Assembly (NCBI RefSeq): GCF_032854445.1
Contig: NC_088298.1
Coordinates: 7,799,504 to 7,863,503, forward strand
Direction of reading: 5' to 3'
Origin: Liolophura sinensis
Taxonomy: Eukaryota; Mollusca; Polyplacophora; Chitonida; Chitonidae
DNA length: 64,000 nucleotides
The notes below the pieces were generated by a model, which did no database searches, was not told the origin of the DNA, and was given only the letters and a program-made list of their open reading frames with translations. The translations under genes were made by a program, and so were the position numbers. Shown in pieces: positions 25,817 through 59,909 of this stretch. How positions within the stretch are numbered: position 1 is the first letter of the stretch; each line of letters opens with the position of its first letter.

Positions 25817-25879
25817 GTTCTGTACTCACAGGAAAATGTCACTCAACATTTCCTGTCTCTTTTCTGCAAGGTAAAGACA
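25817..25879 (+). promoter_or_regulatory. 5' part of the mucin exon: acceptor and upstream short ORF
   Basis: A strong acceptor (ATGTTTTTTTCTTAG|G, ending at 25816) suggests that the giant exon starts at 25817 and that there is an upstream exon. The segment 25817-25879 is open in the mucin frame but has an in-frame TAG exactly at the acceptor. In another frame ATG at 25835 opens a 12-codon upstream ORF closed by the TAA at 25871-25873. CTGCAAG|GTAAAG at 25864-25876 also looks like a splice donor, so an alternative first exon ending there is possible. Confidence 0.35.
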
Positions 25880-28800
25880 ATGATGAGGCCACCTATCCTA
25901 GGCATCTTGATACTGGTCGGGTGCAGTTCTTTAATATCTCTTTCAACCGAATCTTTAACAAAAACAATAAAAGGCCGATCTACCAGCACGGCAAGCGCAT
26001 TTACAAGCACGTCAAGCCCATCTACCAGCATGGCAAGCTTGTCCACCAGCAAGAAAATCCCTTCTAGGAGTACGACAATCACATTTACCAGCACTCCACC
26101 AACTACCAGCACCGCAAGCCAATCTACCAACACGGCAAGCTTATCTAACGGCACCTCACCATCTACCAGCACGCTAAGAGCAACTATTAGCACGGCAAGC
26201 ATGGCTACCAACAAACTTGGCCCGACTACGAGGACAACAGGCCCATCAGCCAACACGGTAAGCCAATTCACAAGAACGATAAGTGCATCTACCAGCATTT
26301 CACCATCTATCAGCAAGGCAAGCCTATCTACCATCACGGCAAGCCAATCCACTAGGAAGACAAACCAATCTACCAACAAGCCTCCATACACCAGCACCGC
26401 AAGCCAATCAACCAGCACTGCAAGCGTAACTACCAGCACAGCAAACCCATCCATCAGCACAGCAAGCTCACCTACCAGCGCGAGAAGCTCATCGACCAGC
26501 ACGGGAAGTCCATCTACCACCACAGCAAGACCATCTATCAGCAGGGCAAGCCCACTTACAAAGAGGACAAGCCCATCCACCAGCACGAAAACAACATCCA
26601 CCAGCAGGACAAACCTATCTACCAGTAACGCAAGCCGATCTATTAGCACAGGAAACCCATCGACGAACACGCGAAGCCCATCTGCCAGCACGGGAACAAC
26701 ACCCACCAGGACCACAAGCCCATCTACCAGCACATCGAGATCATCTACCAACAGCGCAAACACATCTCCCAACAGGGCAAGCCCATCTTTCAGCACGTCG
26801 AATCCATCTACCAGCACGGCAAATCCATTTACCAGTACGACAAACCCATCTTTTAGCACTGCAAACCCATCCAATGGCACTGAAAGCCCTTCTACCAGTA
26901 CGACAATCACATTTACCAGCACTCCACCAACTACCAGCACCGCAAGCCCATCTACCAACACGGCAAGCTTATCTAACGGCACCCCAGCATCTACCAGCAC
27001 GCTAAGAGCATCTATTAGCACGGGAAGCATGGCTACCAACAAACTTGGCCCGACTACGAGGACAACAGGCCCATCAGCCAACACGGTAAGCCAATTCACA
27101 AGAACGGTAAGTGCATCTACCAGCATTTCACCATCTATCAGCAAGGCAAGCCTATCTACCATCACGACAAGCCAATCCACCAGGAAGACAAACCAATCTA
27201 CCAACAAGCCACTATACACCAGCACCGCAAGCCAATCAACCAGCACTGCAAAGGTAACTACCAGCACAGCGTACCCATCAACCAGCACAGCAATCTCACC
27301 TACCAGCGCAACAAGCTCATCAACCAGCACGGGAAATCCATCTACCACCACAGCAAGCCCATCTGTCAGCAGGGCAAACCCAACTACAAGGAGGAAAAGC
27401 CCATCTGCCAGCACAAAAACAACATCCACCAGCAGGACAACCCAATCTACCAGTACCGCAAACCGATCTATCAGAACGGCAAACCCATCCACAAACTCAA
27501 GAAGCCCATCTGCTAGCACGGGAACAACACCCACCAGGACCGCAAGCCCATGGAGATCATCTACCAACAGGGCAAGCGCATCTCCCAACAGGGCAAGCCC
27601 ATCTTTCAGTACGTCAAATCCAACTACCAGCACAGCTAATCCATCTACCAGCACGGCAAATCCATTTACCAGTACGACAAACCCATCTTTTAGCACGGCA
27701 AGCTTGTCCACCAGCAAGAAAATGCCTTCTACCAGTACGGCAAGCACATTTACCAGCACTCCACCAACTACCAGCACCGCAAGCCCATCTACCAACACGG
27801 CAAGCTTATCTAACGGCACATCACCATCTACCAGCACAGTAAACGCAACCATCAGCACGGCAAGCATAGCTACCAACAAACTTGGTCCGACTGCAAGGAC
27901 AACAGGCTCATCATCCAACACGGCAAGCCAATTTACAAGAACGGCAAGTGCATCTACCAGCACGTCACCATCTATCAGCAAGACAAGCCTATCTACCATC
28001 ACGGCAAGCCAATCCACCAGGAAGACAAACCAATCTACCAACACGCCACCATACACCATCACCGCAATCCCATCCACCAGCACAGCAAGCTCACCTACCA
28101 GCGCGACAAGCCAATCCACCAGAACGGCAAGCTCATTTACAAGCACGGCAAAACAATCTACCATAATGGCAAGCCCATCCATCAACACGTCGAATCCATC
28201 TACCAGCTCGGCAAACCCAACTACCAGCACGATAAGATCATCTACCAGCTCGGCAAGCGCATCAATCAGCACAGCAAGCCCATCTACCAATAGGGCAAGA
28301 TTATCTACAAGCACCTCACCATCTACCAGCACGGTAAAACCAACCATCAGTACGGCAAGCATGGCTACCAACAAACTTGGCCTGACTGCAAGGACAACAG
28401 GCCCATCAGCCAGCACAGCTAGGCAATTTGCAAGAACGGCCAGTGCATCTACCAGCACGTCACCATCTATCAGCAAGGCAAGCCTATCTACCATCACGGC
28501 AAGCCAATCCACCAGGAAGACAAACCAATCTACCAACAAGCCACTAAACACCAGCACCGCAAGCCAATCAACCAGCACTGCCAGCGTAACTACCAGCACG
28601 GCAAACCCATCCATCAGCACAGCAAGCTCACCTACCAGCGCAGGAAGCTCATTGACCAGCACGGGAAATCAATCTACCACCACAGGAAGCCCATCTATCA
28701 GCAGGGCAAGCCCACTTACAAAGAGGACAAGCCCATCCACCAGCACGAAAACAACATCCACCAGCAGGACAAACCTATCTACCAGTAACGCAAGCCGATC

Positions 28801-31800
28801 TATTAGCACAGGAAACCCATCGACGAACACGGGAAGCCCATCTGCCAGCACGGGAACAACACCCACCAGGACCACAAGCCCATCTACTAGCACCTCGAGA
28901 CCATCTATCAACATTGCAAACACATCTCCCAACAGGGCAAGCCCATCTTTCAGCACGTCGAGTCCATCTACCAGCACGGCAAATCCATATACCAGCACGA
29001 CAAACCCATCTTTTAGCACTGCAAACCCATCCAATAGCACTGAAAACCCTTCTACCAGTACGACAATCACATTTACCAGCACTCCACCAACTACCAGCAC
29101 AGCAAGCCCATATACCAACACGGCAAGCTTTTCTAACGGCACCTCGCCATCTAGCAGAACGCTAAGAGCAACTATCAGGACGGGAAGCATGGCTACCAAC
29201 AAACTTGGCCCGACTACGAGGACAACAGGCCCATCAACCAACACGGTAAGCCAATTCACAAGAACGGCAAGTGCATCTACCACAATGTCACCATCTATCA
29301 GCAAGGCAAGCCTATCTACCATCACGGCAAGCCAATCCACCAGGAAGACAAACCAATCTACCAACAAGCCACCATACACCAGCACCGCAAGCCAATCAAC
29401 CAGCACTGCAAGCGTAACTACCAGCACAGCTAATTCATTAACCAGCACAGCAATCTCACCTACCAGCGCAACAAGCTCAACAACTAGAACGGGAAGTCCA
29501 TCTACCACCACAGCAAGCAAATCTATCGGCAGGGCAAACCCAACTACAAGGAGGACAAGCCCATCCGCCAGCACGAAAACAACATCCACCAGCAGGACAA
29601 ACCAATCTACCAGTACCGCAAACCGATCTATCAGAACGGCAAACCCATCCACAAACACGGGAAGCCCATCTGCCAGCACGGGAACAACACACACCAGGAC
29701 CGCAAGCCCATCTACCAGCACGTCAAGATCATCTACCAACATTGCAAGCGCATCTCCCAACAGGGCAAGTCCATTTTTCAGCACGTCGAATCCATCTACC
29801 AGCACGGGAAATCCAACTACAAGTACGACAAACCCGTCTATTAGCACGACAAACACATCCAATAGCACGCAAAGCCCTTCTACCAGTACCCCAAGCACAT
29901 TTACCAGCACTCCACCAACTACCAGCACCGGAAGCCCATCTACCAACACGGCAAGCTTATCTACAAGCACATCACCATCTACCAGCACGGTAAGCGCAAC
30001 TATCAGCACGGCAAGCATAGCTACTAAAAAACTTGGTCCGACTGCAAGGACAACAGGCCCATCAGCCAACACGCCAAGCCAATTTACAAGAACGCCAAGT
30101 GCATCTACCAGCACGTCACCATCTATCAGCAAGACAAGCCTATCTACCATCACGGCAAGCCAATCCACCAGGAAAACAAACCAATCTACGAACAAGCCAT
30201 TAAACACCAGCACCGCAAGCCAATTAACCAGCACTGCAAGCGTAACTACCAGCACATCAAACCCATCAACCAGCACAGCAATCTCACCTACCAGCGCAAC
30301 AAGCTCATCAACCAGCACGGGAAGTCCATCTACCACCACAGCAAGCCCATCTATCGACAGGGGAAACCCAAATACAAGGAGGACAAGTCCATCTGCCAGC
30401 ACGAAAACAACATCCACCAGCAGGACAAACCAATCTACCAGTAACGCAAACCGATCTATCAGAACGGCAAACCCATCCACAAACTCGGGAAGCCCATCTG
30501 CCAGCACGGGAAAAACATCCACCAGGACCGCAAGCCCATCGAGATCATCTACCAACAGGGCAAGCGCTTCTCCCAACAGGGCAAGCCCATCTTTCAGCAC
30601 GTCGATTCCATCTACCAGCACGGTAGATCCATTTGCCAGTACAACAAACCCATCTTTTAGCACAACAAGCTTGTCCACCAGCAAGAAAATGCCTTCTACC
30701 AGTACGGCAAGCACATTTACCAGCACTCCACCAACTACCAGCACCGCAAGCCCATCTACCAACACGGCAAGCTTATCTACAAGCACCTCACCATCTACCA
30801 GCACCGTAAGCGCAACTATCGGCACGACAAGCATGGCTACTAAAAAACATGGTCCGACTGCAAGGACAACAGGCTCATCATCCAACACGGCAAGCCAATT
30901 TACAAGAACGGCAAGTGCATCTACCAGCACGTCACCATCTATCAGCAAGACAAGCCTATCTACCATCACGGCAAGCCAATCCACCAGGAAGACAAACCAA
31001 TCTACCAACACGCCAACATACACCATCACCGCAATCCCATCCACCAGCACAGCAAGCTCACCTACCAGCGCGACAAGCCAATCCACCAGAACGGCAAGCT
31101 CATTTACAAGCACGGCAAGACCATCAACCAGCATGGCAAGCCCATCCATCAACACGTCGAATCCATCTACCAGCTCGGCAAACCCAATTTCCAGCACGAT
31201 AAGATCATCTACCAGCTCGACAATCGCATCAATCAGAACAGGAAGCCCATCTACCAACACGGCAAGCTTATCTACAAGCACCTCAACATCTACCAGCACG
31301 GTAAAAGCAACAATCAGTAGGGCAAGCATGGCTAACAACAAACTTGGCCTGACTGCAAGGACAACAGGCCCATCAGGCAGCACAGCAAGGCAATTTGCAG
31401 GAACGGCAAGTGCATCTACCAGCATTTCACCATCTATCAGCAAGGCAAGCCTATCTACCATCACGGCAAGCCAATCCACCAGGAAGACAAACCAATCTAC
31501 CAACAAGCCATTAAACACCAGCACCGCAAGCCAATCAACCAGCACTGCAAGCGTAACTACCAGCACAGCGAACCCATCAACCAGCACAGCAATCTCACCT
31601 ACCAGCGCAACAAGCTCATCAACCAGCACGGGAAGTCCATCTACCACCACAGCAAGACCATCTATCAGCAGGGCAAACCCAACTACAACGAGGACAAGCC
31701 CATCCACCAGCACGAAAACAACATCCACCAGCAGGACAAACCTATCTACCAGTAACGCAAGCCGATCTATTAGCACAGGAAACCCATCGACGAACACGGG

Positions 31801-34800
31801 AAGCCCATCTGCCAGCACGGGAACAACACCCACCAGGACCACAAGCCCATCTACCAGCACATCGAGACCATCTACCAACATTGCAAACACATCTCCCAAC
31901 AGGGCAAGCCCATCTTTCAGCACGTCGAATCCATCTACCAGCACGGCAAATCCATATACCAGTACGACAAACCCATCTTTTAGCACGGCAAACCCATCCA
32001 ATAGCACTGAAAGCCCTTCTACCAGTACGACAATCACATTTACCAGCACTCCACCAACTACCAGCACCGCAAGCCCATCTACCAACACGGCAAGCTTATC
32101 TACAAACATATCACCATCTACCAGCACGGTAAACGCAACCATCAGCACGGTAAGCATAGCTAGCAACAAACTTGGCCTGACTGCAAGGACAACAGGCCCA
32201 TCAGCTAGTACGGCTAGGCAATTTTCAATAACGGCAAGTGCATCTACCAGCACGTCACCATCTATCAGCAAGACAAGCCTATCTACCATCACGACAAGCC
32301 AATCCACCAGGAAGACAAACCAATCTACGAACAAGCCATTAAACACCAGCACCGTAAGTCAATTAACCAGCACTGCAAGCGTAACTACCAGCACATCGAA
32401 CCCATCAACCAGCACAGCAATCTCACCTACCAGCGCAACAAGCTCATCAACCAGCACGGGAAGTCCATCTACCACCACAGCAAGCCCATCTATCGGCAGG
32501 GGAAACCCAAATACAAGGAGGACAAGTCCATCTGCCAGCACGAAAACAACATCCACCAGCAGGACAAACCAATCTACGAGTAACGCAAACCGATCTATCA
32601 GAACGGCAAACCCATCCACAAACTCGGGAAGCCCATCTGCCAGCACGGGAAAAACATCCACCAGGACCGCAAGCCCATCGAGATCATCTACCAACAGGGC
32701 AAGCGCTTCTCCCAACAGGGCAAGCCCATCTTTCAGCACGTCGATTCCATCTACCAGCACGGTAAATCCATTTGCCAGTACAACAAACCCATCTTTTAGC
32801 ACAACAAGCTTGTCCACCAGCAAGAAAATGCCTTCTACCAGTACGGTAAGCACATTTACCAGCACTCCACCAACTACCAGCACCGCAAGCCCATCTACCA
32901 ACACGGCAAGCTTATCTACAAGCACCTCACCATCTACCAGCACGGTAAGCGCAACTATCGGCACGACAAGCATGGCTACTAAAAAACATGGTCCGACTGC
33001 AAGGACAACAGGCTCATCATCCAACACGGCAAGCCAATTTACAAGAACGGCAAGTGCATCTACCAGCACGTCACCATCTATCAGCAAGACAAGCCTATCT
33101 ACCATCACGGCAAGCCAATCCACCAGGAAGACAAACCAATCTACCAACACGCCAACATACACCATCACCGCAATCCCATTCACCACCACAGCAAGCTCAC
33201 CTACCAGCGCGACAAGCCAATCCACCAGAACGGCAAGCTCATTTACAAGCACGGCAAGACCATCTACCAGCATGGCAAGCCCATCCATCAACACGTCGAA
33301 TCCATCTACCAGCTCGGCAAACCCAACTTCCAGCACGATAAAATCATCTACCAGCTCGACAATCGCATCAATCAGAACAGGAAGCCCATCTACCAACACG
33401 GCAAGCTTATCTACAAGCACCTCACCATCTACCACCACGGTAAAAGCAACAATCAGTAGGTCAAGCATGGCTAACAACAAACTTGGCCTGACTGCAAGGA
33501 CAACAGGCCCATCAGGCAGCACAGCAAGGCAATTTGCAGGAACGGCAAGTGCATCTACCAGCATTTCACCATCTATCAGCAAGACAAGCCTATCTACCAT
33601 CACGGCAAGCCAATCCACCAGGAAGACAAACCAATCTACCAACAAGCCATTAAACACCAGCACCGCAAGCCAATCAACCAGCACTGCAAGCGTAACTACC
33701 AGCACAGCGAACCCATCAACCAGCACAGCAATCTCACCTACCAGCGCAACAAGCTCATCAACCAGCACGGGAAGTCCATCTACCACCACAGCAAGACCAT
33801 CTATCAGCAGGGCAAACCCAACTACAACGAGGACAAGCCCATCCACTAGCACGAAAACAACATCCACCAGCAGGACAAACCTATCTACCAGTAACGCAAG
33901 CCGATCTATTAGCACAGGAAACCCATCGACGAACACGGGAAGCCCATCTGCCAGCACGGGAACAACACCCACTAGGACCACAAGCCCATCTACCAGCACA
34001 TCGAGACCATCTACCAACATTGCAAACACATCTCCCAACAGGGCAAGCCCATCTTTCAGCACGTCGAATCCATCTACCAGCAAGGCAAATCCATATACCA
34101 GTACGACAAACCCATCTTTTAGCACGGCAAACCCATCCAATAGCACTGAAAGCCCTTCTACCAGTACGACAATCACATTTACCAGCACTCCACCAACTAC
34201 CAGCACCGCAAGCCCATCTACCAACACGGCAAGCTTATCTAACGGCACCCCAGCATCTACCAGCACGCTAAAAGCATCTATTAGCACGACCAGCATGGCT
34301 AGCAACAAACTAGGCCCGACTACGAGGACAACAGGCCCATCAGCCAACACGGTAAGCCAATTCACAACAACGGCAAGTGCATCTACCAGCATTTCGCCAT
34401 TTATCAGCAAGGCAAGCCTATCTACCATCACGACAAGCCAATCCACCAGGAAGACAAACCAATCTACCAACAAGCTATTAAACACCAGCACCGCAAGGAT
34501 ATTAACCAGCACTACAAGCGTAACTACCAGCACGGCGAACCCATCAACCAGCACAGCAATCTCACCTACCAGCGCAACAAGCTCATCAACCAGCACGGGA
34601 AGTCCATCTACCAGCACAGCAAGCCCATCTATCAGCAGGGCAAACCCAAATACAAGGAGGACAAGTCCATCTGCCAGCACGAAAACAACATCCACCAGCA
34701 GGACAAACCAATTTACCAGTATCGCAAACCGATCTATTAGAACGGCAAACCCATTCACAAACTCGGGAAGCCCATCTGCCAGCACGGGAACAACACCCAC

Positions 34801-37800
34801 CAGGACCGCAAGCCCATGGAGATCATCTACCAACAGGGCAAGCGCATCTCCCAACAGGGCAAGCCCATCTTTCAGCACGTCATTTCCATCTACCAGCAGG
34901 GCAAATCCATTTACCAGTACAACAAACCCATCTTTTAGCACAACAAGCTTGTCCACCAGCAAGAAAATCCCTTCTACCAGTGCGGCAAGCCCATTTACCA
35001 GCACTCCACCAACTACCAGCACCGCAAGCCCATCTACCAACACGGCAAGCTTATCTACCAGCACCTCACCATCTACCAGCACAGTAAACGCAAATATCAG
35101 CACGACAAGCATGGCTTCTAAAAAACTTGGTCCGACTGCAAGGACAACAGGCTCATCATCCAACACGGCAAGCCAATTTACAAGAACGGCAAGTGCATCT
35201 ACCAGCACGTCACCATCTATCAGCAAGACAAGCCTATCTACCATCACGGCAAGCCAATCCACCAGGAAGACAAACCAATCTACCGACACGCCAACATACA
35301 CCATCACCGCAATCCCATCCACCACCACAGCAAGCTCACCTACCAGCGAGACAAGCCAATCCACCAGAACGGCAAGCTCATTTACAAGCACGGCAAGACC
35401 ATCTACCAGCATGGCAAGCCCATCCATCAACACGTCGAATCCATCTACCAGCTCGGCAAACCCAACTTCCAGCACGATAAAATCATCTACCAGCTCGACA
35501 ATCGCATCAATCAGAACAGGAAGCCCATCTACAAACACGGCAAGCTTATCTACAAGCACCTCACCATCTACCAGCACGGTAAAAGCAACAATCAGTACGG
35601 CAAGCATGGCTAGCAACAAACTTGGCCCGACTGCAAGGACAACAGGCCCATCAGGCAGCACAGCAAGGCAATTTGCAAGAACGGCCAGTGCATCTACCAG
35701 CATTTCACCATCTATCAGCAAGGCAAGCCTATCTACCATCACGGCAAGCCAATCCACCAGGAAGACAAACCAATCTACCAACAAGCCATTAAACACCAGC
35801 ACCGCAAGCCAATCAACCAGCACTGCAAGCGTAACTACCAGCACAGCGAACCCATCAACCAGCACAGCAATCTCACCTACCAGCGCAACAAGCTCATCAA
35901 CCAGCACGGGAAGTCCATCTACCACCACAGCAAGACCATCTATCAGCAGGGCAAACCCAACTACAACGAGGACAAGCCCATCCACCAGCACGAAAACAAC
36001 ATCCACCAGCAGGACAAACCTATCTACCAGTAACGCAAGCCGATCTATTAGCACAGGAAACCCATCGACGAACAAGGGAAGCCCATCTGCCAGCACGGGA
36101 ACAACACCCACCAGGACCACAAGCCCATCTACCAGCACATCGAGACCATCTATCAACATTGCAAACACATCTCCCAACAGGGCAAGCCCATCTTTCAGCA
36201 CGTCGAATCCATCTACCAGCAAGGCAAATCCATATACCAGTACGACAAACCCATCTTTTAGCACGGCAAACCCATCCAATAGCACTGAAAGCCCTTCTAC
36301 CAGTACGACAATCACATTTACCAGCACTTCACCAACTACCAGCACCGCAAACCCATCTACCAACACGGCAAGCTTATCTAACGGCACCCCAGCATCTACC
36401 AGCACGCTAAAAGTATCTATTAGCACCACCAGCATGGCTAGCAACAAACTTGGCCCGACTACGAGGACAACAGGCCCATCAGCCAACACGGTAAGCCAAT
36501 TCACAACAACGGCAAGTGCATCTACCAGCATTTCGCCATTTATCAGCAAGGCAAGCCTATCTACCATCACGACAAGCCAATCCACCAGGAAGACAAACCA
36601 ATCTACCAACAAGCTATTAAACACCAGCACCGCAAGGATATTAACCAGCACTACAAGCGTAACTACCAGCACGGCGAACCCATCAACCAGCACAGCAATC
36701 TCACCTACCAGCGCAACAAGCTCATCAACCAGCACGGGAAGTCCATCTACCACCACAGCAAGCCCATCTATGAGCAGGGCAAACCCAAATACAAGGAGGA
36801 CAAGTCCATCTGCCAGCACGAAAACAACATCCACCAGCAGGACAAACCAATTTACCAGTACCGCAAACCGATCTATTAGAACGGCAAACCCATTCACAAA
36901 CTCGGGAAGCCCATCTGCCAGCACGGGAACAACACCCACCAGGACCGCAAGCCCATGGAGATCATCTACCAACAGGGCAAGCGCATCTCCCAACAGGGCA
37001 AGCCCATCTTTCAGTACGTCAATTCCATCTACCAGCAGGGCAAATCCATTTACCAGTACAACAAACCCATCTTTTAGCACGACAAGCTTGTCCACCAGCA
37101 AGAAAATCCCTTCTACCAGTGCGGCAAGCCCATTTACCAGCACTCCACCAACTACCAGCACCGCAAGCCCATCTACCAACACGGCAAGCTTATCTACAAG
37201 CACCTCACCATCTACCAGCACAGTAAACGCAAATATCAGCACGACAAGCATGGCTACTAAAAAACTTGGTCCGACTGCAAGGACAACAGGCTCATCATCC
37301 AACACGGCAAGCCAATTTACAAGAACGGCAAGTGCATCTACCAGCACGTCACCATCTATCAGCAAGACAAGCCTATCTACCATCACGGCAAGCCAATCCA
37401 CCAGGAAGACAAACCAATCTACCAACACGCCAACATACACCATCACCGCAATCCCATCCACCACCACAGCAAGCTCACCTACCAGCGCGACAAGCCAATC
37501 CACCAGAACGGCAAGCTCATTTACAAGCACGGCAAGACCATCTACCAGCATGGCAAGCCCATCCATCAACACGTCGAATCCATCTACCAGCTCGGCAAAC
37601 CCAACTTCCAGCACGATAAGATCATCTACCAGCTCGACAATCGCATCAATCAGAACAGGAAGCCCATCTACCAACACGGCAAGCTTATCTACAAGCACCT
37701 CACCATCTACCAGCACGGTAAAACCAACCATCAGTACGGCAAGCATGGCTAGCAACAAACTTGGCCTGACTGCAAGGACAACAGGCCCATCAGGCAGCAC

Positions 37801-40800: not shown

Positions 40801-43800
40801 CAGCACGTCAAGCATGGCTACTAAAAAACTTGGTCCGACTGCAAGGACAACAGGCTCATCATCCAACACGGCAAGCCAATTCACAAGAACGGTAAGTGCA
40901 TCTACCAGCACGTCACCATCTATCAGCAAGACAAGTCTATCTACCATCACGACAAGCCAATCCACTAGGAAGACAAACAAATCTACCAACACGCCAACAT
41001 ACACCATCACCGCAACCCCATCCACCAGTACAGCAAGGTCACCTACAAGCGCGACAAGTCAATCCACCAGAACAGCAAGCTCATTTACAAGCACGGCAAG
41101 ACCATCTACCAGCATGGCAAGCCCATCCATCAACACGTCGAATCCATCTACCAGCTCGGCAAACCCAACTACCAGCACAATAAGATCATCTACCAGCTCG
41201 GCAAGCGCATCAATCAGCACAGCAAGCCCATCTACCAACACGGCAAGCTTATCTACAAGCACCTCACCATCTACCAGGACGGTAAAAGCAACAATCAGTA
41301 CGGCAAGGTTGTCCACCAGCAAGAAAATGCCTTCTACCAGTACGGCAGGCACATTTACCAGCACTCCACCAACTACCAGCACCGGAAGCCCATCTACCAA
41401 CACGGCAAGCTTATCTAACGGCACCTCACCATCTACCAGCACGGTAAGCGCAACTATCAGCACGTCAAGCATGGCTACTAAAAAACTTGGTCCGACTGCA
41501 AGGACAACAGGCTCATCATCCAACACGGCAAGCCAATTTACAAGAACGGCAAGTGCATCTACCAGCACGTCACCATCTATCAGCAAGACAAGTCTATCTA
41601 CCATCACGACAAGCCAATCCACTAGGAAGACAAACAAATCTACCAACACGCCAACATACACCATCACCGCAATCCCATCCACCAGTACAGCAAGGTCACC
41701 TACAAGCGCGACAAGCCAATCCACCAGAACAGCAAGCTCATTTACAAGCACGGCAAGACCATCTACCAGCATGGCAAGCCCATCCATCAACACGTCGAAT
41801 CCATCTACCAGCTCGGCAAACCCAACTACCAGCACAATAAGATCATCTACCAGCTCGGCAAGCGCATCAATCAGCACAGCAAGCCCATCTACCAACACGG
41901 CAAGCTTATCTACAAGCACCTCACCATCTACCAGGACGGTAAAAGCAACAATCAGTACGGCAAGCTTGGCTACCAACAAACTTGGCCTGACTGCAAGGAC
42001 AACAGGCCCATCAGGCAGCACAGCAAGGCAATTTGCAAGAACGGCAAGCGCATCTACCAGCATTTCACCATCTATCAGCAAGGCAAGCCTATCTACCATC
42101 ACGGCAAGCCAATCCACCAGGAAGACAAACCAATCTACCAACAAGCCATTAAACACCAGCACCGCAAGCCAATCAACCAGCACTGCAAGCGTAACTACCA
42201 GCACAGCGAACCCATCAACCAGCACAGCAATCTCACCTACCAGCGCAACAAGCTCATCAACCAGCACGGGAAGTCCATCTTTCACCACAGCAAGACCATC
42301 TATCAGCAAGGCAAACCCAACTACAAAGAGGACAAGCCCATCTGCCAGCACGAAAACAACATCCACCAGCAGGACAAACCAATCTACCAGTAACGCAAAC
42401 CGATCTATCAGAACGGCAAACCCATCCACAAACTCGGGAAGCCCATCTGCCAGCACGGGAACAACACCCACCAGGACCGCAAGCCCATGGAGATCACCTA
42501 CCAACAGGGCAAGCGCATCTCCCAACAGGGCAAGTCCATCTTTCAGTACGTCGAATCCATCTACCAGCACAGCGAATCCACCTACCAGCACGGCAAATCC
42601 ATTTACCAGTACGACAAACCCATCTTTTAGGACAGCAAGCTTGTCCACCAGCAAGAAAATGCCTTCTACCAGTACGGCAAGCACATTTACCAGCACTCCA
42701 CCAACTACCAGCACCGGAAGCCCATCTACCAACACGGCAAGCTTATCTACAAGCACATCACCATCTACCAGCACGGTAAACGCAACCATCAGCACGGCAA
42801 GCATAGCTAGCAACAAACTTGGCCCGACTGCTAGAACAACAGGCCCATCAGCTAGTACGGCTAGGCAATTTTCAAGAACGTCAAGTGCATCTACCAGCAC
42901 GTCACCATCTATCAGCAAGGCAAGCCTATCTACCATCACGGCAAGCCAATCCACCAGGAAGACAAACCAATCTACCAACAAGCCACTAAACACCAGCACT
43001 GCAAGCCAATCAACCAGCACTGCCAGCGTAACTACCAGCACGGCAAACCCAACCATCAGCACAGCAAGCGTAACTACCAGCACAGCGAACCCATCAACCA
43101 GCAGAGTAATCTCACCTACCAGCCCAACAAGCTCATCAACCAGCACGGGAAGTCCATCTACCACCACAGGAAGCCGATCTATCAGCAGGGCAAGCCCACT
43201 TACAAAGAGGACAAGCCCATCCACCAGCACGAAAACAACATCCACCAGCAGGACAAACCTATCTACCAGTAACGCAAGCCGATCTATTAGCACAGGAATC
43301 CCATCGACGAACACGGGAAGCTCATCTGCCAGCACGGGAACAACACCCACCAGGACCACAAGCCCATCTACCAGCACATCGAGACCATCTACCAACATTG
43401 CAAACACATCTCCCAACAGGGCAAGCCCATCTTTCAGCACGTCGAATCCATCTACTAGCACGGCAAATCCATATACCAGTACGACAAACCCATCTTTTAG
43501 CACGGCAAACCCATCCAATAGCACTGAAAGCCCTTCTACCAGTACGACAATCACATTTACCAGCACTCCACCAACTACCAGCACCGCAAGCCCATCTACC
43601 AACACGGCAAGCTTATCTAACGGCACCCCAGCATCTACCAGCACGCTAAGAGCATCTATTAGCACGGCCAGCATGGCTACCAACAAACTTGGCCCGACTA
43701 CGAGGACAACAGGCCCATCAGCCAACACGGTAAGCCAATTCACAAGAACGACAAGTGGATCTACCAGCATTTCACCATCTATCAGCAAGGCAAGCCTATC

Positions 43801-46800
43801 TACCATCACGGCAAGCCAATCCACCAGGAAGACAAACCAATCTACCAACAAGCCTTTAAACACCAGCACCGCAAGCCAATCAACCAGCACTACAAGCGTA
43901 ACTACCAGCACGGCGAACCCATCAACCAGCACAGCAATCTCACCTACCAGCGCAACAAGCTCATCAACCAGCACGGGAAGTCCAACTACCACCACAGCAA
44001 GACCATCTATCAGCAGGGCAAACCCAAATACAAGGAGGACAAGTCCATCTGCCAGCACGAAAACAACATCCACCAGCAGGACAAACCAATCTACCAGTAC
44101 CGCAAACCGATCTATGAGAACAGCAAACCCATCCACAAACTCGGGAAGCCCATCTGCCAGCACGGGAACAACACCCACCAGGACCGCAAGCCCATGGAGA
44201 TCATCTACCAACAGGGCAAGCGCATCTCCCAACAGGGCAAGCCCATCATTCAGCACGTCAATTCCATCTACCAGCAGGTCAAATCCATTTACCAGTACAA
44301 CAAACCCATCTTTAAGCACGACAAGCTTGTCCACCAGCAAGAAAATGCCTTCTACCAGTACGGCAAGCCCATTTACCAGCACTCCATCAACTACCAGCAC
44401 CGCAAGCCCATCTACCAACACGGCAAGCTTATCTACAAGCACCTCACCATCTACCAGCACGGTAAGCGCAACAATCAGTACGTCAAGCATGGCTACTAAA
44501 AAACTTGGTCCGATTGCAAAGACAACAGGCTCATCATCCAACACGGCAAGCCAATTTACAAGAACGGCAAGTGCATCTAGCAGCACGTCACCATCTATCA
44601 GCAAGGCAAGCCTATCTACCATCACGGCAAGCCAATCCACCAGGAAGACAAACCAATCTACCAACACGCCAACATACACCATCACCGCAATCCCATCCAC
44701 CAGCACAGCAAGCTCACCTACAAGCGCGACAAGCCAATCCACCAGAACAGCAAGCTCATTTACAAGCACGGCAAGACCATCTACCGGCATGGCAAGCCCA
44801 TCCATCAACACGTCGAATCCATCTACCAGCTCGGCAAACCCAACTACCAGCACGATAAGATCATCTACCAGCTCGGCAAGCGCATCAATCAGCACAGCAA
44901 GCCCATCTACCAACACGGCAAGCTTATCTACAAGCACCTCACCATCTACCAGCACGGTAAAAGCAACCTTCAGTACAGCAAGCATGGCTACCAACAAACT
45001 TGGCCTGACTGCAAGGACAACAGGCCCATCAGGCAGCACACCAAGGCAATTTGCAAGAACGGCAAGTGCATCTACCAGCATTTCACTATCTATTAGCAAG
45101 GCAAGCCTATCTACCGTCACGACAAGCCAATCCACCAGGAAGACAAACCAATCTATCAACAAGCCATTTAACACCAGCACCGCAAGCCAATCAACCAGCA
45201 CTGCAAGCGTAACTACCAGCACAGCGAACCCATCAACCAGCACAGCAATCTCACCTACCAGCGCAACAAGCTCATCAACCAGCACGGGAAGTCCATCTAC
45301 CACCACAGCAAGACCATCTATCAGCAGGGCAAGCCCAACTATAAGGAGGACAAGCCCATCTGCCAGCACGAAAAAAACATCCACCAGCAGGACAAACCAA
45401 TCTACCAGTACCGCAAACCGATCTATCAGAACGGCAAACCCATCCACAAACTCGGGAAGCCCATCTGCCAGCACGGGAACAACACCCACCAGGACCGCAA
45501 GCCCATGGAGATCATCTACCAACAGGGCAAGCGCATCTCCCAACAGGGCAAGTCCATCTTTCGGTACGTCGATTCCATCTACCAGCACAGCGAATCCATC
45601 TACCAGCACGGCAAATCCATTTACCAGTACGACAAACCCATCATTTAGCACGGCAAGCTTGTCCACCAGCAAGAAAATGCCTTCTACCAGTACGGCAAGC
45701 ACATTTACCAGCACTCCACCAACAACTAGCACCGGAAGCCCATCTACCAACACGGCAAGCTTATCTACAAGCACCTCACCATCTACCAGCACGGTAAACG
45801 CAACCATCAGCACGGCAAGCATAGCTATCAACAAACTTGGCCCGACTGCAAGGACAACAGGGCCATCAGCTAGTACGGCTATTCAATTTTCAAGAACCGC
45901 AACTGCATCTACCAGCACGTCACCATCTATCAGCAAGGCAAGCCTATCTACCATCAAGGCAAGACAATCCACCAGGAAGACAAACCAATCTACCAACAAG
46001 CCTCCATACACCAGCACTGCAAGCCAATCAACCAGCACAGCCAGCGTAACTACCAGCACGGCAAAGCCAACCATCAGCACAGCAAGCTCACCTACAAGCG
46101 CGAGAAGCTCATCGACCAGGACGGGAAGTCCATCTACCACCACAGGAAGCCCATCTATCAGCAGGGCAAGCCCACTTACAAAGAGGACAAGCCCATCCAC
46201 CAGCACGAAAGCAACATCCACCAGCAGGACAAACCTATCTACCAGTAACGCAAGCCGATCTATTAGCACAGGAAACCCATCGACCACCACGCGAAACCCA
46301 TCTGCCAGCACGGCAACAACACCCACCAGGACCACAATCCCATCTACCAGCACATCGAGACCAGCTACCACCATTGCAAACACATCTCCCAACAGGGCAA
46401 GCCCATCTTTCAGCACGTCAATTCCATCTACCATCAGGTCAAATCCATTTACCAGTACAACAAACCCATCTTTTAGCACGACAAGCTTGTCCACCAGGAA
46501 GAAAATCCCTTCTACCAGTACGGCAAGCCCATTTACCAGCACTCCACCAACTACCAGCACCGCAAGCCCATCTACCAACACGGCAAGCTTATCTACCAGC
46601 ACCTCACCATCTACCAGCACGGTAAGCGCAACTATCAGCACGACAAGCATGGCTACTAAAAAACTTGGTCCGACTGCAAGGAGAACAGGCTCATCATCCA
46701 AAACGGCAAGCCAATTTACAAGAACGGCAAGTGCATCTAGCGGCACGTCACCATCTATCAGCAAGACAAGCCTATCTACCATCACGACAAGCCAATCCAC

Positions 46801-49800
46801 CAGGAAGACAAACCAATCTACCAACACGCCAACATACACCATCACCGCAATCCCATCCACCAGCACAGCAAGCTCACCTACCAGCGCGACAAGCCAATCC
46901 ACCCGAACAGCAAGCTCATTTACAAGCACGGCAAGACCATCTACCAGCATGGCAAGCCCATCCATCAACACGTCGAATCCATCTACCAGCTCGGCAAACC
47001 CAACTACCAGCACGATAAGATCATCTACCAGCTCGGCAAGCGCATCAATCAGCACAGCAAGCCCATCTACCAACACGGCAAGCTTATCTACAAGCACCTC
47101 ACCATCTACCAGCACGGTAAAAGCAACCTTCAGTACAGCAAGCATGGCTACCAACAAACTTGGCCTGACTGCAAGGACAACAGGCCCATCAGGCAGCACA
47201 GCAAGGCAATTTGCAAGATCGGCAAGTGCATCTACCAGCACGTCACCATCTATCAGCAAGGCAAGCCTATCTACCATCACGGCAAGCCAATCCACCAGGA
47301 AGACAAACCAATCTACCAACAAGCCATTAAACACCAGCACCGCAAGCCAATCAACCAGCACTACAAGCGTAACTACCAGCACAGCGAACCCATCAACCAG
47401 CACAGCAATCTCACCTACCAGCGCAACAAGCTCATCAACCAGCACGGGAAGTCCATCTACCACCACAGCAAGACCATCTATCAGCAGGGCAAAACCAACT
47501 AAATGGAGGACAAGCCCATCTGCCAGCACGAAAACAACATCCACCAGCAGGACAAACCAATCTACCAGTACCGCAAACCGATCTATCAGAACGGCAAACC
47601 CATCCACAAACTCGGGAAGCCCATCTGCCAGCACGGGAACAACACCCACCAGGACCGCAAGCCCATGGAGATCATCTACCAACAGGGCAAGCGCATCTCC
47701 CAACTGGGCAAGCACATCTTTCAGTACGTCGAATCCATCTACCAGCACAGCCAATCCATCTACCAGCACGGCAAATCCATTTACCAGTACGACAAACCCA
47801 TCTTTTAGCACGGCAAGCTTGTCCACCAGCAAGAAAATGCCCTCTACCAGTACGGGAAGCACATTTACCAGCACTCCACCAACTACCAGCACCGGAAGCC
47901 CATCTACGAACACGGCAAGCTTATCTACAAGCACCTCACCATCTACCACCACGGTAAACGCAAACATCAACACGGCAAGCACAGCTACCAACAAACTTGG
48001 CCCGACTGCAAGGACAACAGGCCCATCAGCTAGTACGGCGAGGCAATTTTCAAGAACGGCAAGTGCATCTACCAGCACGTCACCATCTATAAGCAAGGCA
48101 AGGCTATCTACCATCACGGCAAGCCAGTCCACCAGGAAGACAAACCAATCTACCAACAAGCCTTTAAACACTAGCACCGCAAGCCAATCAACCAGCACTG
48201 CAAGCGTAACTACCAGCACGGCAAACCCATCCATCAGCACAGCAAGCTCACCTAAAAGCGCGAGAAGCTCATCGACCAGGACGGGAAGTCCATCTACCAC
48301 CACAGGAAGCCCATCTATCAGCAGGGCAAGCCCACTTACAAAGAGGACAAGCCCATCCACCAGCACGAAAACAACATCCACCAGCAGGACAAACCTATCT
48401 ACCAGTAACGCAAGCCGATCTATCAGCACAGGAAACCCATCGACGAACACGGGAAGCCCATCTGCCAGCACGGGAACAACACCCACCAGGACCACAAGCC
48501 CATCTACCACCACATCGAGATCTTCTACCAACAGGGCAAACACATCTCCCAACAGGGCAAGCCCATCTTTCAGCACGTCGAATCCATCTACCAGCACGGC
48601 AAATCCATATACCAGTACGACAAACCCATCTTTTAGCACCGCAAACCAATCCAATAGCACTGAAAGCCCTTCTACCAGTACGACAAATACATTTACCAGC
48701 ACTCCACCAACTACCAGCACCGCAAGCCCATCTACCAACACGGCAAGCTTATCTAACGGCACCCCTGCATCTACCAGCACGCTAAGAGAATCTATTAGCA
48801 CGGCCAGCATGGCTACCAACAAACTTGACCCGACTACGAGGACAACAGGCCCATCAGCCAACACGGTAAGCCAATTCACAAGAACGGCAAGTGCATCTAC
48901 CAGCATTTCGCCATTTATCAGCAAGGCAAGCCTATCTACCATCACGACAAGCCAGTCCACCAGGAAGACAAACAAATCTACTAACAAGCCACCATACACC
49001 AGCACTGCAAGCCAATCAACCATCACTGCAAGCGTAACTACCAGCACAGCGAACCCATCAACCAGCACAGCACTCTCACCTACCAGCGGAACAAGCTCAT
49101 CAACCAGCACGGGAAGTCCATCTACCACCACAGCAAGCCCATCTATCAGCAGGGCAAACCCAAATACAAGGAGGACAAGTCCATCTGCCAGCACGAAAAC
49201 AACATCCACCAGCAGGACAAACCAATCTACCAGTACCGCAAACCCATCTATCAGAACGGTAAACCCATCCACAAACACGGGAAGCCCATCTGCCAGCACG
49301 GGAACATCACCCACCAGGACCGCAAACCCATCTGCCAGCACTTCGAGATCATCTACCAACAGGGCAAGCGCATCTCCCAACAGGGCAAGCCCATCTTTTA
49401 GCACAGCGAATCCATCTACCAGCAAGGCAAATCCATTTACCAGTACGACAAACCCATCTTTTAGCACGGCAAGCTTGTCCACCAGCAAGAAAATGCCTTC
49501 TTCCAGTACGGCAAGCACATTTACCAGCACTCCACCAACTACCAGCACCGCAAGCCCATCTACCAACACGGCAAGCTTATCTACAAGCACATCACCATCT
49601 ACCAGCACGGTAAACGCAACCATCAGCACGACAAGCATGGCTACCAACAAACTTGGCCCGACTGCAAGGACAACAGGCCCATCAGCCAGCACGGCTAGGC
49701 AAGTTGCAAGAACGGTAAGTGCATCTACCAGCATTTCACCATCTATCAGCAAGGCAAGCCTATCTACCATCAGGTCAAGCCAATCCACCAGGAAGACAAA

Positions 49801-52800
49801 GCAATCTACCAACAAGCCACTAAACACCAGCACCACAAGCCAATTAACCAGCACTGCAAGCGTAACTACCAGCACGGCAAACCCATCCATCAGCATAGCA
49901 AGCTCACCTACCAGCGCGAGAAGCTCATCGACCAGCACGGGAAGTCCATTTACCACCACAGGAAGCCCATCTATCAGCGGGGCAAGCCCACTTACAAAGA
50001 GGACAAGCCCATCCACCAGCACAAAAACAACATCCACCAGCAGGAAAAACCTATCTACCAGTAACGCAAGCCGATCTATTAGCACAGGAAACCCATCGAC
50101 GAACACGGGAAGTTCCTCTGCCAGCACGGGAACAACACCCACCAGGACCACAAGCCCATCCACCAGCACGAAAACAACATCCACCAGCAGGACAAACCTA
50201 TCTACCAGTAACGCAAGCCGATCTATTAGCACAGGAAACCCATCGACGAACACGCGAAGCCCATCTGCCAGCACGGGAACAACACCCACCAGGACCACAA
50301 CCCCATCTACCAGCACATCGAGATCATCTACCAACAGGGCAAACGCATCTCCCAACAGGGCAAGCCCATCTTTCAGCACGTCGAATCCATCTACCAGTAC
50401 GGCAAATCCATATACCAGTACGACAAACCCATCTTTTAGCTCGGCAAACCCATCCAATAGCACTGAAAGCCCTTCTACCAGTACGACAATCACATTTACC
50501 AGCACTCCACCAACCACCAGCACCGCAAGCCCATCTACCAACACGGCAAGCTTATCTAACGGCACCCCAGCATCTACCAGCACGCTAAAAGCATCTATTA
50601 GCACGGCCAGCATGGCTAGCAACAAACTTGGCCCGACTACGAGGACAACACGCCCATCAGCCAACACGGTAAGCCAATTCACAAGAACGGCAAGTGCATC
50701 TACCAGCATTTCACCATCTATCAGCAAGGCAAGCCTATCTACCATCACGGCAAGCCAATCCACCAGGAAGACAAACCAATCTACCAACAAGCCACTAAAC
50801 ACCAGCACCGCGAACCAATCAACCAGCACTGCAAGCGTAACTACCAGCACAGCGAACCCATCAACCAGCACAGCAATCTCACCTACCAGCGCAACAAGCT
50901 CATCAACCAGCACGGGAAGTCCATCTGCCATCACAGCAAGACCATCTATTAGCAGGGCAAACCCATCTACAAGGAGGACAAGCCCATCTGCCAGCACGAA
51001 AACAACATCCACCAGCAGGACAAATCAATCTACCAGTACCGCAAACCGATCTATCAGAACGGCAAACCCATCCACAAACACGGTAAGCCCTTCTGCCAGC
51101 ACGGGAACAACACCCACCAGGACCGCAAGCCCATGGAGATCATCTACCAACAGGGCAAGCGCATCTCCCAACAGGGCAAGTCCATCTTTCAGCACGTCGA
51201 TTCCATCTACCAGCAGGGCAAATCCATTTACCAGTACGACAAATCTATCTTTTAGCACAACAAGCTTGTCCACCAGCAAGAAAATCCCTTCTACCAGTAC
51301 GGCAAGCCCATTTACCAGCACTCCACCAAATACCAGCACCGCAAGCCGATCTACCAACACGGCAAGCCTATCTACCAGAACCTCACCATCTACAAACACG
51401 GTAAGAGCAACTATCAGCACGACAAGCATGGCTACTAAAAAACTTGGTCCGACTGCAAGGAGAACAGGCTCATCATCCAACACGGCAAGCCAATTTACAA
51501 GAACTTCAAGTGCATCTATCAGCACGTCACCATCTATCAACAAGGCAAGCCTATCTACCATCACGGCAAGCCAATCCACCAGGAAGACAAACCAATCTAC
51601 CAACACGCCACCATACACCATCACCGTAATCCCATCCACCAGCACAGCAAGCTCACCTACCAGCGCGACAAGCCAATCCACCAGAACGGCAAGCTCATTT
51701 ACAAGCACGGCAAGACCATCTACCAGCATGGCAAGCCCATCCATCAACACGTCGAATCCATCTACCAGCTCGGCAAACCCAACTACCAGCACGATAAGAT
51801 CATCTACCAGCTCGGCAAGCGCATCAATCAGCACAGCAAGCCCATCTACCAACACGGCAAGCTTATCTACAAACACATCACCATCTACCAGCACGGTAAA
51901 CGCAACCATCAGTACGGCAAGCATGGCTACCAACAAACTTGGCCCGACTACGAGGACAACACGCCTATCAGCCAACACGGCAAGCCAATTTACAAGAACG
52001 GTAAGTGCATCTACCAGCATTTCACCATCTATCAGCAAGGCAAGCCTAACTACCATCACGACAAGCCAATCCACCAGGAAGACAAACCAATCTACCAACA
52101 AGCCTCCATACACCAGCACCGCAAGCCAATCAACCAGCACTGCAAGCGTAACTACCAGCACAGCGAACCCATTAACCAGCACAGCAAGCTCACCTACCAG
52201 CGCGAAAAGCTCATCGACCAGCACGGGAAGTCCATCTCTTATCACAGGAAGCCCATCTATGAGCAGGGCAAACCCAATTACAAGGAGGACAAGCCAATCC
52301 ACCAGCACGAAAACAACATCCACCAGCAAGACAAAAATATCTACCAGTACCGCAAGCCGATCTTTTAGCACTTCAAACTCATCCACAAACACGGGAAGCC
52401 CTTCTGCCAGCACGGGAAAAACACCCACCAGGACTGCAAGCCCATGGAGATCATCTACCAACAGGGCAAGCGCATCTCCCAACAGGGCAAGCCCATCATT
52501 CAGCACGTCGAAGCTATCTACCAGCAGGGTAAAACGATTTACCAGTACGACAAACCCATCTGTCAGCACGGCAAGCTTGTCCACCAGCAAGAAATTCCTT
52601 TCTACCAACACGGCAAGCACATTTACCAGCACTCCACCAAATACCAGCACCGCAAGCCCATCTACCAACACGGCAAGCCTATCTACCAGAACCTCACCAT
52701 CTACAAACACGGTAAGAGCAACTATCAGCACAGCAAGCATGGCTACCAAAAAACTTACCCCGACTGCGAGGACAACAGGCCCATCAGGCAGCACGGGAAA

Positions 52801-53555
52801 CCTATTTACCTTCACTTCAGTATCTGGCAGCAGGGCCAGCGCATCTCTCAGCACGGCAAATCCATCCACAAGCACGGCAAACCCCTCTACCAGCACAACA
52901 CACCCATCTACCACCACTGGAAGCTCATCTAAAAGCTCGGCAAGCACATCTACCAACAGAGCAAACTCATCTACGCGGTCAACAGGCCCATCAGCCAGAA
53001 TGAGAAGCCCATCTACCACCACGTCAGTATCTACTAGCACGGCAAGCGCATCTCTCAGTACGGCAAACCCATTTACCAGATCGGCAAACCCATCTACCAG
53101 GAAAACAAACCCATCTACCACCATTGGAAGCTCGTCTAAAAGCTCGGCAAGCACAGCTACCAACAGAGCTGGCTCATCTACCCAGCCGACAGGCCAATCA
53201 GCCAGCTTGGCAAGCCTATCTACCAGCACGTCACTATCTACCAGCACAACAAACGTATCTATTAGCACGGTAAAAACATCTACCAGCACGGCAAACACAT
53301 CCACCAGCATGACAATCCTATCCACAAGCACGGTAAGCTCATCAACCGGCACGGGAACTTTTTTTACGAGCACAGTGCGCCCAACCACAAGCACCGTAAG
53401 TTCAACCTTTGAGCACAGCACGGCAAACACAACAAGAAGGACAACGAGCTTAACCAGCAGAAGGACAGGCAGAACCTCCAGCATTGTAGTCCAACCCACT
53501 AGCACGGCTGGACGAAGGACTAAATATGCACTGGGCATTTACACTCCGGCTAAAG
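25880..53555 (+). CDS. giant mucin exon: signal peptide plus 9.2-kresidue PTS domain
   Basis: A single frame of 9,225 complete codons. Residues 1-20 (MMRPPILGILILVGCSSLIS) form a clear signal peptide, hence this ATG. The rest is Ser/Thr-rich with Ala, Pro and Asn in 7-residue units near STSTASP (TCT ACC AGC ACG GCA AGC CCA), the kind of region that is densely O-glycosylated in secreted and tethered mucins. It has no Cys after the signal peptide, many Lys/Arg and very few Asp/Glu. The units form a 713-residue higher-order repeat. The exon ends at GCTAAAG|GTAAGG (phase 1); a further 14 codons to the stop at 53599 are intron read-through. Phase and strand fit the SEA/EGF exons at 59821-62829, so I infer a tethered mucin protecting an epithelial or shell-forming surface. 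A satellite that merely looks coding is the alternative; the unbroken frame and signal peptide argue against it. Confidence 0.85.
39600..39700 (+). repeat. 93-bp internal duplication within the mucin array
   Basis: The 31-residue stretch that begins QSTRKTN and contains TPTYTITAIPSTSTASS is present twice in a row here but once in the other repeats. The join carries the rare sequence SLDS, one of the few Asp residues in the protein. 93 bp is a multiple of three but not of 21, so the heptad phase shifts while the frame is kept. Confidence 0.7.
50008..50300 (+). repeat. 147-bp internal duplication within the mucin array
   Basis: The block starting at CCATCCACCAGCAC (50008) and containing TSTSRTNLSTSNASRSIST is repeated about 147 bp later. 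This lengthens the interval between NKLG boxes from about 836 to about 976 bp. 147 equals seven 21-bp units, consistent with unequal exchange between heptads. Confidence 0.7.
52795..53555 (+). repeat. non-canonical C-terminal part of the PTS domain
   Basis: After the last NKLG-like box the text changes. Units such as SSKSSASTSTNRA and NPSTRKTNPST recur, with Phe and Val near the start (LFTFTSVSGSRAS). The final 60 residues (RRTTSLTSRRTGRTSS, then GRRTKYALGIY) are Arg-rich and not heptad-like. This looks like the diverged border of the array leading into unique sequence. Confidence 0.7.
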
Positions 53556-58478: not shown

Positions 58479-58578
<100 letters not shown>

Positions 58579-59820: not shown

Positions 59821-59909
59821 TCGAATATGGTTTGAAGTTGGACATTTGCATCAACGCAGAATTCAACTCGAACAAGATAGATGAGTATAGAATGGATTGT
59901 GAGCGCAAG
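59821..59909 (+). CDS. mucin gene exon: first part of a SEA-like domain
   Basis: An 89-bp exon between TTTAAATGTTTCAG and GCGCAAG|GTAATG, starting in phase 1 and ending in phase 0. The G left by the giant exon plus TC gives Val, then EYGLKLDICINAEFNSNKID and EYRMDCERK. K-L-x-I-x-x-x-x-x-F at the start and the following helix are the usual beginning of SEA domains. The exact phase match with the donor at 53555 is the main evidence that this belongs to the mucin. Confidence 0.7.

What the first reader, a model, noticed from the sequence alone, without database searches (positions are those of the whole stretch)
25880..53555. A 27.7-kb single coding exon encoding a 9.2-kresidue mucin domain
Seen: one frame, signal peptide at its start, no stop in 9,225 codons, donor in phase 1 at its end. 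From memory, the large exon of human MUC16 (about 21.7 kb) is usually cited as the largest human coding exon; this one would exceed it. If transcribed it would be among the largest mucins and exons known in invertebrates.
Basis: partly seen in the sequence, partly recalled or inferred. Interest (0 to 1): 0.92.

Follow-up and report, generated by a model that had tools for sequence, protein, structure and literature searches.

The report
Giant membrane mucin gene in mollusc
The 27.7-kb open stretch is best read as the single giant coding exon of a membrane-anchored, mucus-type glycoprotein gene in a mollusc; it belongs to a local gene family whose members keep similar ends but carry different sugar-bearing repeat cores of very different length.

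Summary
One + strand frame is open for 9,260 codons; from ATG 25880 to a phase-1 donor (53555|GTAAGG) lie 27,676 coding bases. The frame is protected: 0 of 646 single-difference codons between repeat copies differ by a stop, against 48 of 591 and 62 of 620 in the other forward frames. The gene goes on: five further exons (59821 to about 65105, the last outside the window) fit in phase and encode an SEA-like domain, an EGF-like domain, a transmembrane helix and a short tail. The likely product is a 9,465-residue tethered mucin, 948 kDa before sugars. At least six relatives exist, one of them without the membrane part; flanks are shared, but repeat units (7, 8, 11, 13 residues) and core lengths (0.7 to 9.2 thousand codons) differ. 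Hemocyanin genes point to a mollusc. The size claim needs correction: human MUC3B (39,267 bp) and MUC12 (32,428 bp) exons are longer (PMC9578598), and a caddisfly silk exon equals it (PMC12576367). No transcript data were available; SEA and EGF labels stay below Pfam cut-offs.

The parts
25880..53555 (+). Giant coding exon: ATG to phase-1 donor AAAG|GTAAGG; signal-peptide-like start and 9.2 thousand residues of Ser/Thr-rich repeats
   Evidence: start and donor region shared with relatives
25832..25879 (+). Probable 5' untranslated part of the same exon, after an acceptor-like CTCACAG; holds a short out-of-frame upstream ATG
   Evidence: similarity among D, A, B, E spans the CACAG, and C loses it about there; inference, no transcript
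25880..25948 (+). Signal-peptide-like segment (about 23 residues)
   Evidence: hydropathy; similar in A, C, E
25974..53353 (+). Repeat array: 7-residue base unit (PSTSTAS type) in higher-order units of 713 or 720 residues, made of modules of about 276, 272/279 and 165 residues (31 of 36 marker spacings)
59821..59909 (+). Exon 2: first part of the SEA-like domain (phase 1 in, phase 0 out)
   Evidence: relatives in A, B, C, F
60787..60845 (+). Exon 3: second part of the SEA-like domain (phase 0 in, phase 2 out)
61963..62153 (+). Exon 4: last part of the SEA-like domain; the G-S-V motif of four relatives reads K-S-V here (phase 2 in, phase 1 out)
62643..62829 (+). Exon 5: EGF-like domain (phase 1 in, phase 2 out)
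   Evidence: Pfam EGF match only below its cut-off
54839..55389 (.). Dispersed element inside the first large intron, also present in the same intron of A, B, C and E: marks one common duplicated ancestor

Best explanation
This is the central exon of a membrane-tethered mucin gene of a mollusc (called D here). A signal peptide sends the chain into the secretory pathway. Some 5,000 Ser/Thr residues are then presumably O-glycosylated, so the chain stands out as a brush. An SEA-like domain, an EGF-like domain and a transmembrane helix at the C-terminal end anchor it to the cell surface. The brush would be 2 to 3 micrometres long if fully extended (my estimate at about 0.25-0.35 nm per residue, a recalled figure). 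The repeat array grows and is evened out by unequal exchange or conversion in units of about 2.1 kb. The reading frame is held by selection against stops and frame shifts, while the amino-acid sequence of the repeats is only weakly held. Shown in sequence: the open frame, its protection, five downstream exons that fit in phase, and relatives with the same plan. Inferred: expression, splicing, glycosylation, surface location and function.
For: Open frame and frame protection. Five further exons whose ten borders are AG or GT and whose phases (1, 0, 2, 1, 2) all fit, giving one chain with a transmembrane helix (the sixth exon is L029:913-1105, window 64913-65105). Relatives A, B, C, F have counterparts of these exons, and A, B, E, F share with D the end (Q/L)G(I/T)Y(T/N/I)PAK before the donor; C has lost that end. 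G has SEA-like, EGF-like and transmembrane exons on the opposite strand. Purifying selection on the SEA-like part between A and F (dN/dS 0.31, Fisher p 0.0001) and C and F (0.34, p 0.0004). The profile of five SEA-like domains has as its best solved-structure match residues 175-215 of ADGRF1 (E 0.005 and 0.009), inside its SEA domain (about 148-256, PMC7060178 passages).
Against: No RNA or protein data. Pfam SEA is found in none of the five assembled C-termini nor genome-wide (where the 14 control genomes did not ring either); EGF matches stay below their cut-offs. D alone has no solved-structure match better than E 0.46. Between D and its nearest relative B the C-terminal exons show no purifying selection: dN/dS 2.61, 64 against 7 changes, p 0.014. 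B's repeat exon is broken into three frame pieces, so members can decay. The exact length rests on one assembly of near-identical repeats.
Confidence: 0.82

Rival explanations
1. The gene is no longer expressed or is decaying: a duplicated copy whose frame is still open only because the array was recently re-amplified.
For: In 14 consecutive of 43 sampled places neighbouring units 2,139 bases apart are 91-100% identical, so one open unit copied many times would be open by inheritance. The sister gene B has frame breaks. D-B exons show no purifying selection.
Against: Among the differences that did accumulate between copies, 0 of 646 change a stop in the coding frame while the null expects about 1.5% (about 10), and 48 of 591 and 62 of 620 do in the other forward frames. 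All ten splice borders and the five downstream exons are intact, with no stop or length change in the 236 codons compared with B.
Confidence: 0.12
2. The main product is secreted, not tethered: translation ends 14 codons past the donor (frame open to 53596), giving a free mucin.
For: The frame runs on past the donor as GKGNLKKVLYCHCW before a stop, and E keeps nearly the same extension. E has no SEA/EGF/TM exons in the 14.6 kb fetched downstream, and the genome search listed none near it.
Against: A donor at this place is kept in D and in relatives A, B, C, E, F (GTAAG in A, B, D, E), and five in-phase exons follow it; similarity across this stretch extends on into sequence with stops.
Confidence: 0.08
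3. A non-coding satellite, or a gene read from the opposite strand, where frames of up to 2,899 codons also occur.
For: Antisense open frames of 2,899, 1,713 and 1,607 codons; the repeat is highly regular.
Against: The best antisense frame has 6 stops inside the exon and 6 of 621 single-difference codons change a stop there, against 0 of 646 in the sense frame. The repeat was found elsewhere only at E. Relatives with other repeats keep the sense frame open (A 2,466, C about 810, E 1,816, F 708, G 1,233 codons without a stop; B is broken). Start and splice signals of the opposite strand were not searched.
Confidence: 0.02

Closest known systems
Vertebrate MUC3 cluster of SEA-type membrane mucins (MUC3A, MUC3B, MUC12, MUC17)
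   Same: Tandem genes; one giant repeat exon per gene between short conserved ends; SEA domain, transmembrane helix and tail after it; repeat exon lengths differ several-fold while flanks stay alike (PMC9578598, passages; EGF-like domains in most transmembrane mucins: PMC9080433, passage).
   Different: Mollusc. Signal peptide and repeats share one exon, whereas in MUC3A and MUC3B the repeats are exon 2 of 12. The SEA-like domain is not recognised by Pfam. Repeat units of neighbouring genes are different in sequence and length, and backbone charge runs from about -11 to +8 per 100 residues.
MUC16
   Different: MUC16 lacks EGF (PMC9080433, passage) and, as recalled, has many SEA domains; here there is one SEA-like domain, one EGF-like domain and one uninterrupted array.
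Caddisfly heavy-chain fibroin
   Same: Single repeat exon of the same size: 27,606 and 28,008 bp in Phryganopsyche brunnea (PMC12576367).
   Different: Secreted silk with SX-type repeats; no membrane part. No sign of relatedness.
Cnidarian mucin1-like and mucin4-like proteins (Actinia tenebrosa)
   Same: Invertebrate membrane mucins with Pro/Thr/Ser-rich regions and, in some, SEA (PMC9080433, passages).
   Different: Described from transcriptomes; the passages I saw mention no giant exon or gene cluster.

Membership tests
Membrane-tethered (SEA-type) mucin | Long Ser/Thr/Pro-rich repeat domain | tested here: met
   9,225 codons, S+T 54%, P 8.3%
Membrane-tethered (SEA-type) mucin | Repeat domain encoded by one large exon | tested here: met
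   one frame, no stop, donor at its end in phase with the next exon; splicing itself not observed
Membrane-tethered (SEA-type) mucin | Signal peptide | tested here: inconclusive
   hydrophobic start shared with relatives; no dedicated predictor available
Membrane-tethered (SEA-type) mucin | SEA domain | tested here: inconclusive
   Pfam SEA: no hit in 5 of 5 sequences. The five-sequence profile's best solved-structure match is within the ADGRF1 SEA domain, E 0.005-0.009. The G-S-V cleavage-type motif (recalled) is present in A, B, C, F and is K-S-V in D.
Membrane-tethered (SEA-type) mucin | EGF-like domain next to the membrane | tested here: inconclusive
   eight cysteines invariant in 5 of 5 up to D position 176; Pfam EGF_2 in F at E 6.1e-4, 20.5 bits against a cut-off of 22.1; D weaker
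Membrane-tethered (SEA-type) mucin | Single transmembrane helix and short cytoplasmic tail at the C-terminus | tested here: met
   IIAIGVGAGGGVLLVLIIIIIILIRKLRKSKNRRRFK before a stop, read by eye; counterparts in A, B, C, F, G
Membrane-tethered (SEA-type) mucin | O-glycosylation and surface location | not testable with these tools
   needs protein
Gel-forming (secreted) mucin | VWD and Cys-rich / cystine-knot domains | tested here: not met
   one Cys in the 9,225 residues of the repeat exon; no such domain among the Pfam hits for the C-terminus and the first 500 residues; the rest of the window was not scanned with Pfam

The most novel reading that the evidence does not exclude
A mollusc family of tethered mucins in which the same gene frame (signal peptide, end motif, introns, SEA-like/EGF-like/transmembrane exons) carries repeat cores that have been wholly replaced or regrown from different seeds: units of 7, 8, 11 and 13 residues, 0.7 to 9.2 thousand codons, backbone charge from strongly acidic (F, G, C) to strongly basic (D, B). 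Member D is a cationic brush (727 Lys+Arg against 18 Asp+Glu in the exon) microns long, and its membrane-side domains are changing under positive selection, with loss of the SEA cleavage glycine.
Probability: 0.4. Interest if true: 0.75.

Novelty: new variant of a known kind. Interest (0 to 1): 0.6.

Why it matters
Mollusc mucus and surface coats matter for movement, feeding, symbiosis and defence, yet repeat-rich mucin genes are hard to assemble. Here one contig shows a mucin gene cluster, with an exon about as large as the largest invertebrate coding exon my paper searches turned up, next to relatives that share flanks but not repeats. That is a natural experiment on how a repeat core is gained, lost and replaced while its gene stays in frame, and a test case for whether SEA/EGF mucin clusters arose separately outside vertebrates.

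Tried and rejected
Rejected: 'exceeds the largest human exon' (PMC9578598, PMC13345508). Rejected: antisense gene and satellite.

Led nowhere or spoke against the reading: Pfam and solved-structure searches with the single D C-terminus gave only weak, scattered hits; A, C and the five-sequence profile gave weak hits to unrelated toxin-translocation and other models that I take as chance. The genome-wide Pfam SEA search found nothing, in this genome or in 14 control genomes, so it says nothing. Gap lengths in low-identity self-alignments were uninformative (6,206 of 12,871 multiples of 3, from overlapping noisy alignments; 71 of 72 alignment offsets were multiples of 3), and over those noisy alignments the second codon position differed most (26.8%, third 24.7%, first 19.5%). 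I used best-matching windows instead (140 of 153 windows; 13 dropped for identity outside 0.80-0.995). Intron divergence uses 9 of 10 flank pairs; one, at 45.7%, was dropped. As a control for the D-B dN/dS of 2.61, shifting the frame by 1 and 2 gave 0.87 and 0.52. A weak hit on C5:16853258 (E 0.022) and the stretch of C4 between L031 and L032 and beyond L033 were not followed.

Literature: nine of ten paper searches used; none of their listings showed a mollusc tethered-mucin cluster or a mollusc mucin exon of this size. Listings were capped at 6 to 20 rows, and this is one open-access library only.
Full report
1. The observation. The longest open stretch in the window is + strand 25817-53596, 9,260 codons without a stop. 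An acceptor-like CACAG ending at 25831 suggests that the exon itself begins near 25832 (inference). In 2-kb windows GC is about 51% and the strand strongly skewed from 26 to 52 kb, against 29-43% GC outside 24-54 kb.

2. Is the frame real? The DNA is a hierarchy of repeats: a 21-base unit, and a unit of 2,139 or 2,160 bases (713 or 720 residues) made of modules of about 276, 272/279 and 165 residues; 31 of 36 marker spacings have one of these values. A repeat open once is open many times by copying, so length alone is weak evidence. I therefore looked at differences between copies. Of 153 windows of 180 bases, all 153 have their best other copy (median identity 97.8%) at a distance divisible by 3, although those distances spread over residues mod 21. 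In the 140 pairs used, 0 of 646 codons with a single difference differ by a stop in the coding frame, where base-specific rates predict 1.5% (about 10); in the two other forward frames 48 of 591 and 62 of 620 do. The best antisense frame has 6 stops, and 6 of 621 such differences change a stop. The ratio of amino-acid-changing to silent differences, relative to expectation, is 0.85 in frame: the frame is kept, the amino acids hardly. That is what a mucin repeat should look like.

3. What surrounds it. The genome in which the window lies is held (609 Mb; window = contig C4:7799504-7863503). It shows relatives with the same skeleton. On C4, + strand: A (exon about 7651305-7658702), B (about 7703495-7715044), C (about 7782748-7785178), D (this one), F (window 79924-82047). 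On C4, - strand: G (frame 7917380-7913649). On contig C5: E (16185019-16179572). These are at least six relatives; the genome searches score only the best candidates. A, B, C and E share with D the start and about 2 kb or more of the following intron, in blocks of 78-91% identity, and A, B and E the end of the repeat exon. That intron holds one inserted dispersed element (window 54839-55389) in all five, so the genes are copies of one ancestor. The cores between these ends differ: A 2,466 codons of a 13-residue unit; B about 3,860 of an 11-residue unit, in three frame pieces; C about 810 of an 11-residue unit with only 21% S+T; D 9,225 of a 7-residue unit; E 1,816 of a 7-residue unit; F 708 of an 8-residue unit; G 1,233 counted to its stop. 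Net charge per 100 residues is +7.7 in D, +6.3 in B, +3.8 in E, +0.6 in A, -9.3 in C and F, -11.1 in G. D has 727 Lys+Arg and 18 Asp+Glu in the exon.

4. The rest of the gene. Comparing D with A, B, C and F downstream exposed five more exons: 59821-59909, 60787-60845, 61963-62153, 62643-62829 and 64913 to about 65105 (the last in L029:913-1105, beyond the window). All ten borders are AG or GT and the phases (1, 0, 2, 1, 2) fit from one exon to the next, starting with the phase-1 donor of the giant exon. The joined chain has 9,465 residues, 948 kDa before sugars, 5,037 Ser+Thr and 174 N-glycosylation motifs. After the repeats come about 111 residues of SEA-like sequence, an EGF-like domain, a transmembrane helix and a basic tail. 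The sixth exon ends in frame with TGA, overlapping a possible donor, so a longer tail is possible. In A and C the counterpart of the last exon begins after the last part of the EGF-like domain.

5. How sure is the domain naming? Pfam does not recognise SEA in any of the five C-termini; EGF_2 comes just under its cut-off in F (E 6.1e-4) and weaker in B and D. A profile of the five sequences, searched against all solved structures, puts ADGRF1 residues 175-215 first (E 0.005 and 0.009). That stretch lies in its SEA domain (about 148-256; PMC7060178, passages), and the aligned part includes a G-S pair in both. These are marginal E-values, and most of the next hits are unrelated proteins. In D the glycine of the G-S-V motif is lysine; A, B, C and F keep it. 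If the SEA cleavage rule (recalled) holds, D would not be cleaved there.

6. Selection. SEA-like exons: A against F dN/dS 0.31 (p 0.0001), C against F 0.34 (p 0.0004): the family is under constraint. A against C over five exon segments: 0.59, not significant. D against B, five exons: dN 0.125, dS 0.048, ratio 2.61, p 0.014; SEA part 2.72 (p 0.067), EGF+TM 2.39 (p 0.23); frame-shifted controls 0.87 and 0.52 (all). Neighbouring introns of D and B differ by 0.20 (9 of 10 flanks used), more than either rate in the exons. This is a hint of positive selection or at least of lost constraint on amino acids in this pair; it rests on 7 silent changes and one pair of genes, and is one test among several.

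7. Mechanism. Most likely: a surface-anchored, heavily glycosylated brush. Shown: frame, exons that fit, family. Inferred: transcription, splicing, sugars, apical membrane, function in a glycocalyx. For scale, the MUC17-based coat extends 1 micrometre (PMC12172626, abstract in search listing); this repeat domain would be about 2 to 3 micrometres if extended (estimate with a recalled rise per residue). Array growth by unequal exchange or conversion is inferred: at lag 2,139 bases 14 consecutive of 43 sampled places are 91-100% identical, at lag 2,160 6 of 43 are 88-96% identical, and the rest are at or below 70%.

8. Against the known. It works like the MUC3-cluster membrane mucins: tandem genes, one giant repeat exon each, conserved ends, lengths differing several-fold (PMC9578598, passages). 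[quoted passage not shown] Cnidarian SEA-bearing mucin1-like proteins are described (PMC9080433, passages), so invertebrate membrane mucins as such are not new. The size is not a record: MUC3B 39,267 bp, MUC12 32,428 bp, longest MUC4 allele 27,843 bp and MUC12 predicted proteins up to 23,080 residues (PMC13345508, passages), caddisfly silk exon 27,606 and 28,008 bp (PMC12576367). The host is a mollusc by eight hemocyanin beta-sandwich domains in a row on C8 (that this family marks molluscs is recalled, and 0 of 14 control genomes had it); the species was not identified.

9. Verdict. Real and coding by the sequence tests I could run, a membrane mucin rather than only a mucin domain, a new variant of a known kind. 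The more interesting part is the family with different repeat cores, not the record.

Noticed in passing
G000:C4:7703495-7715044 (L015-L016): Relative B: mucin exon split over three frames (two shifts), though its downstream SEA/EGF/TM exons are open; either assembly error or a decaying gene.
   Followed up: partly
G000:C5:16185019-16179572 (L026-L027, minus strand): Relative E on another contig: open 1,816-codon mucin exon, nearest in repeat type to D, but no SEA/EGF/TM exons in the 14.6 kb fetched downstream or listed near it by the genome search.
   Followed up: partly
G000:C4:7782748-7785178 (L023): Relative C keeps the gene frame but its core is an acidic, Ser/Thr-poor 11-residue repeat (AALEIATTPAG), hardly a mucin.
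   Followed up: partly
L032-L033 (G000:C4:7917380-7903789, minus strand): Relative G: 1,233-residue acidic Ser/Thr repeat frame on the opposite strand with SEA-like start, EGF-like and transmembrane exons after it; the frame runs on to a stop and no donor was assigned.
   Followed up: partly
25880-53555: Extreme charge bias of the repeat domain: 727 Lys+Arg against 18 Asp+Glu, predicted pI of the whole chain about 12, while neighbours F and G are acidic.
   Followed up: partly
54839-55389: Dispersed element of about 550 bases with inverted ends, found mostly at 71-80% identity on many contigs and present in the same intron of A-E.
   Followed up: partly
9281-10245, 13406-13818, 14160-14638: Three upstream minisatellite-like arrays with units of 97, 17/34 and 30 bases.
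   Followed up: no
22988-23290: Open fragment resembling the endonuclease part of a LINE retrotransposon (by eye).
   Followed up: no
58482-58585: AT microsatellite of 52 units inside the first large intron.
   Followed up: no
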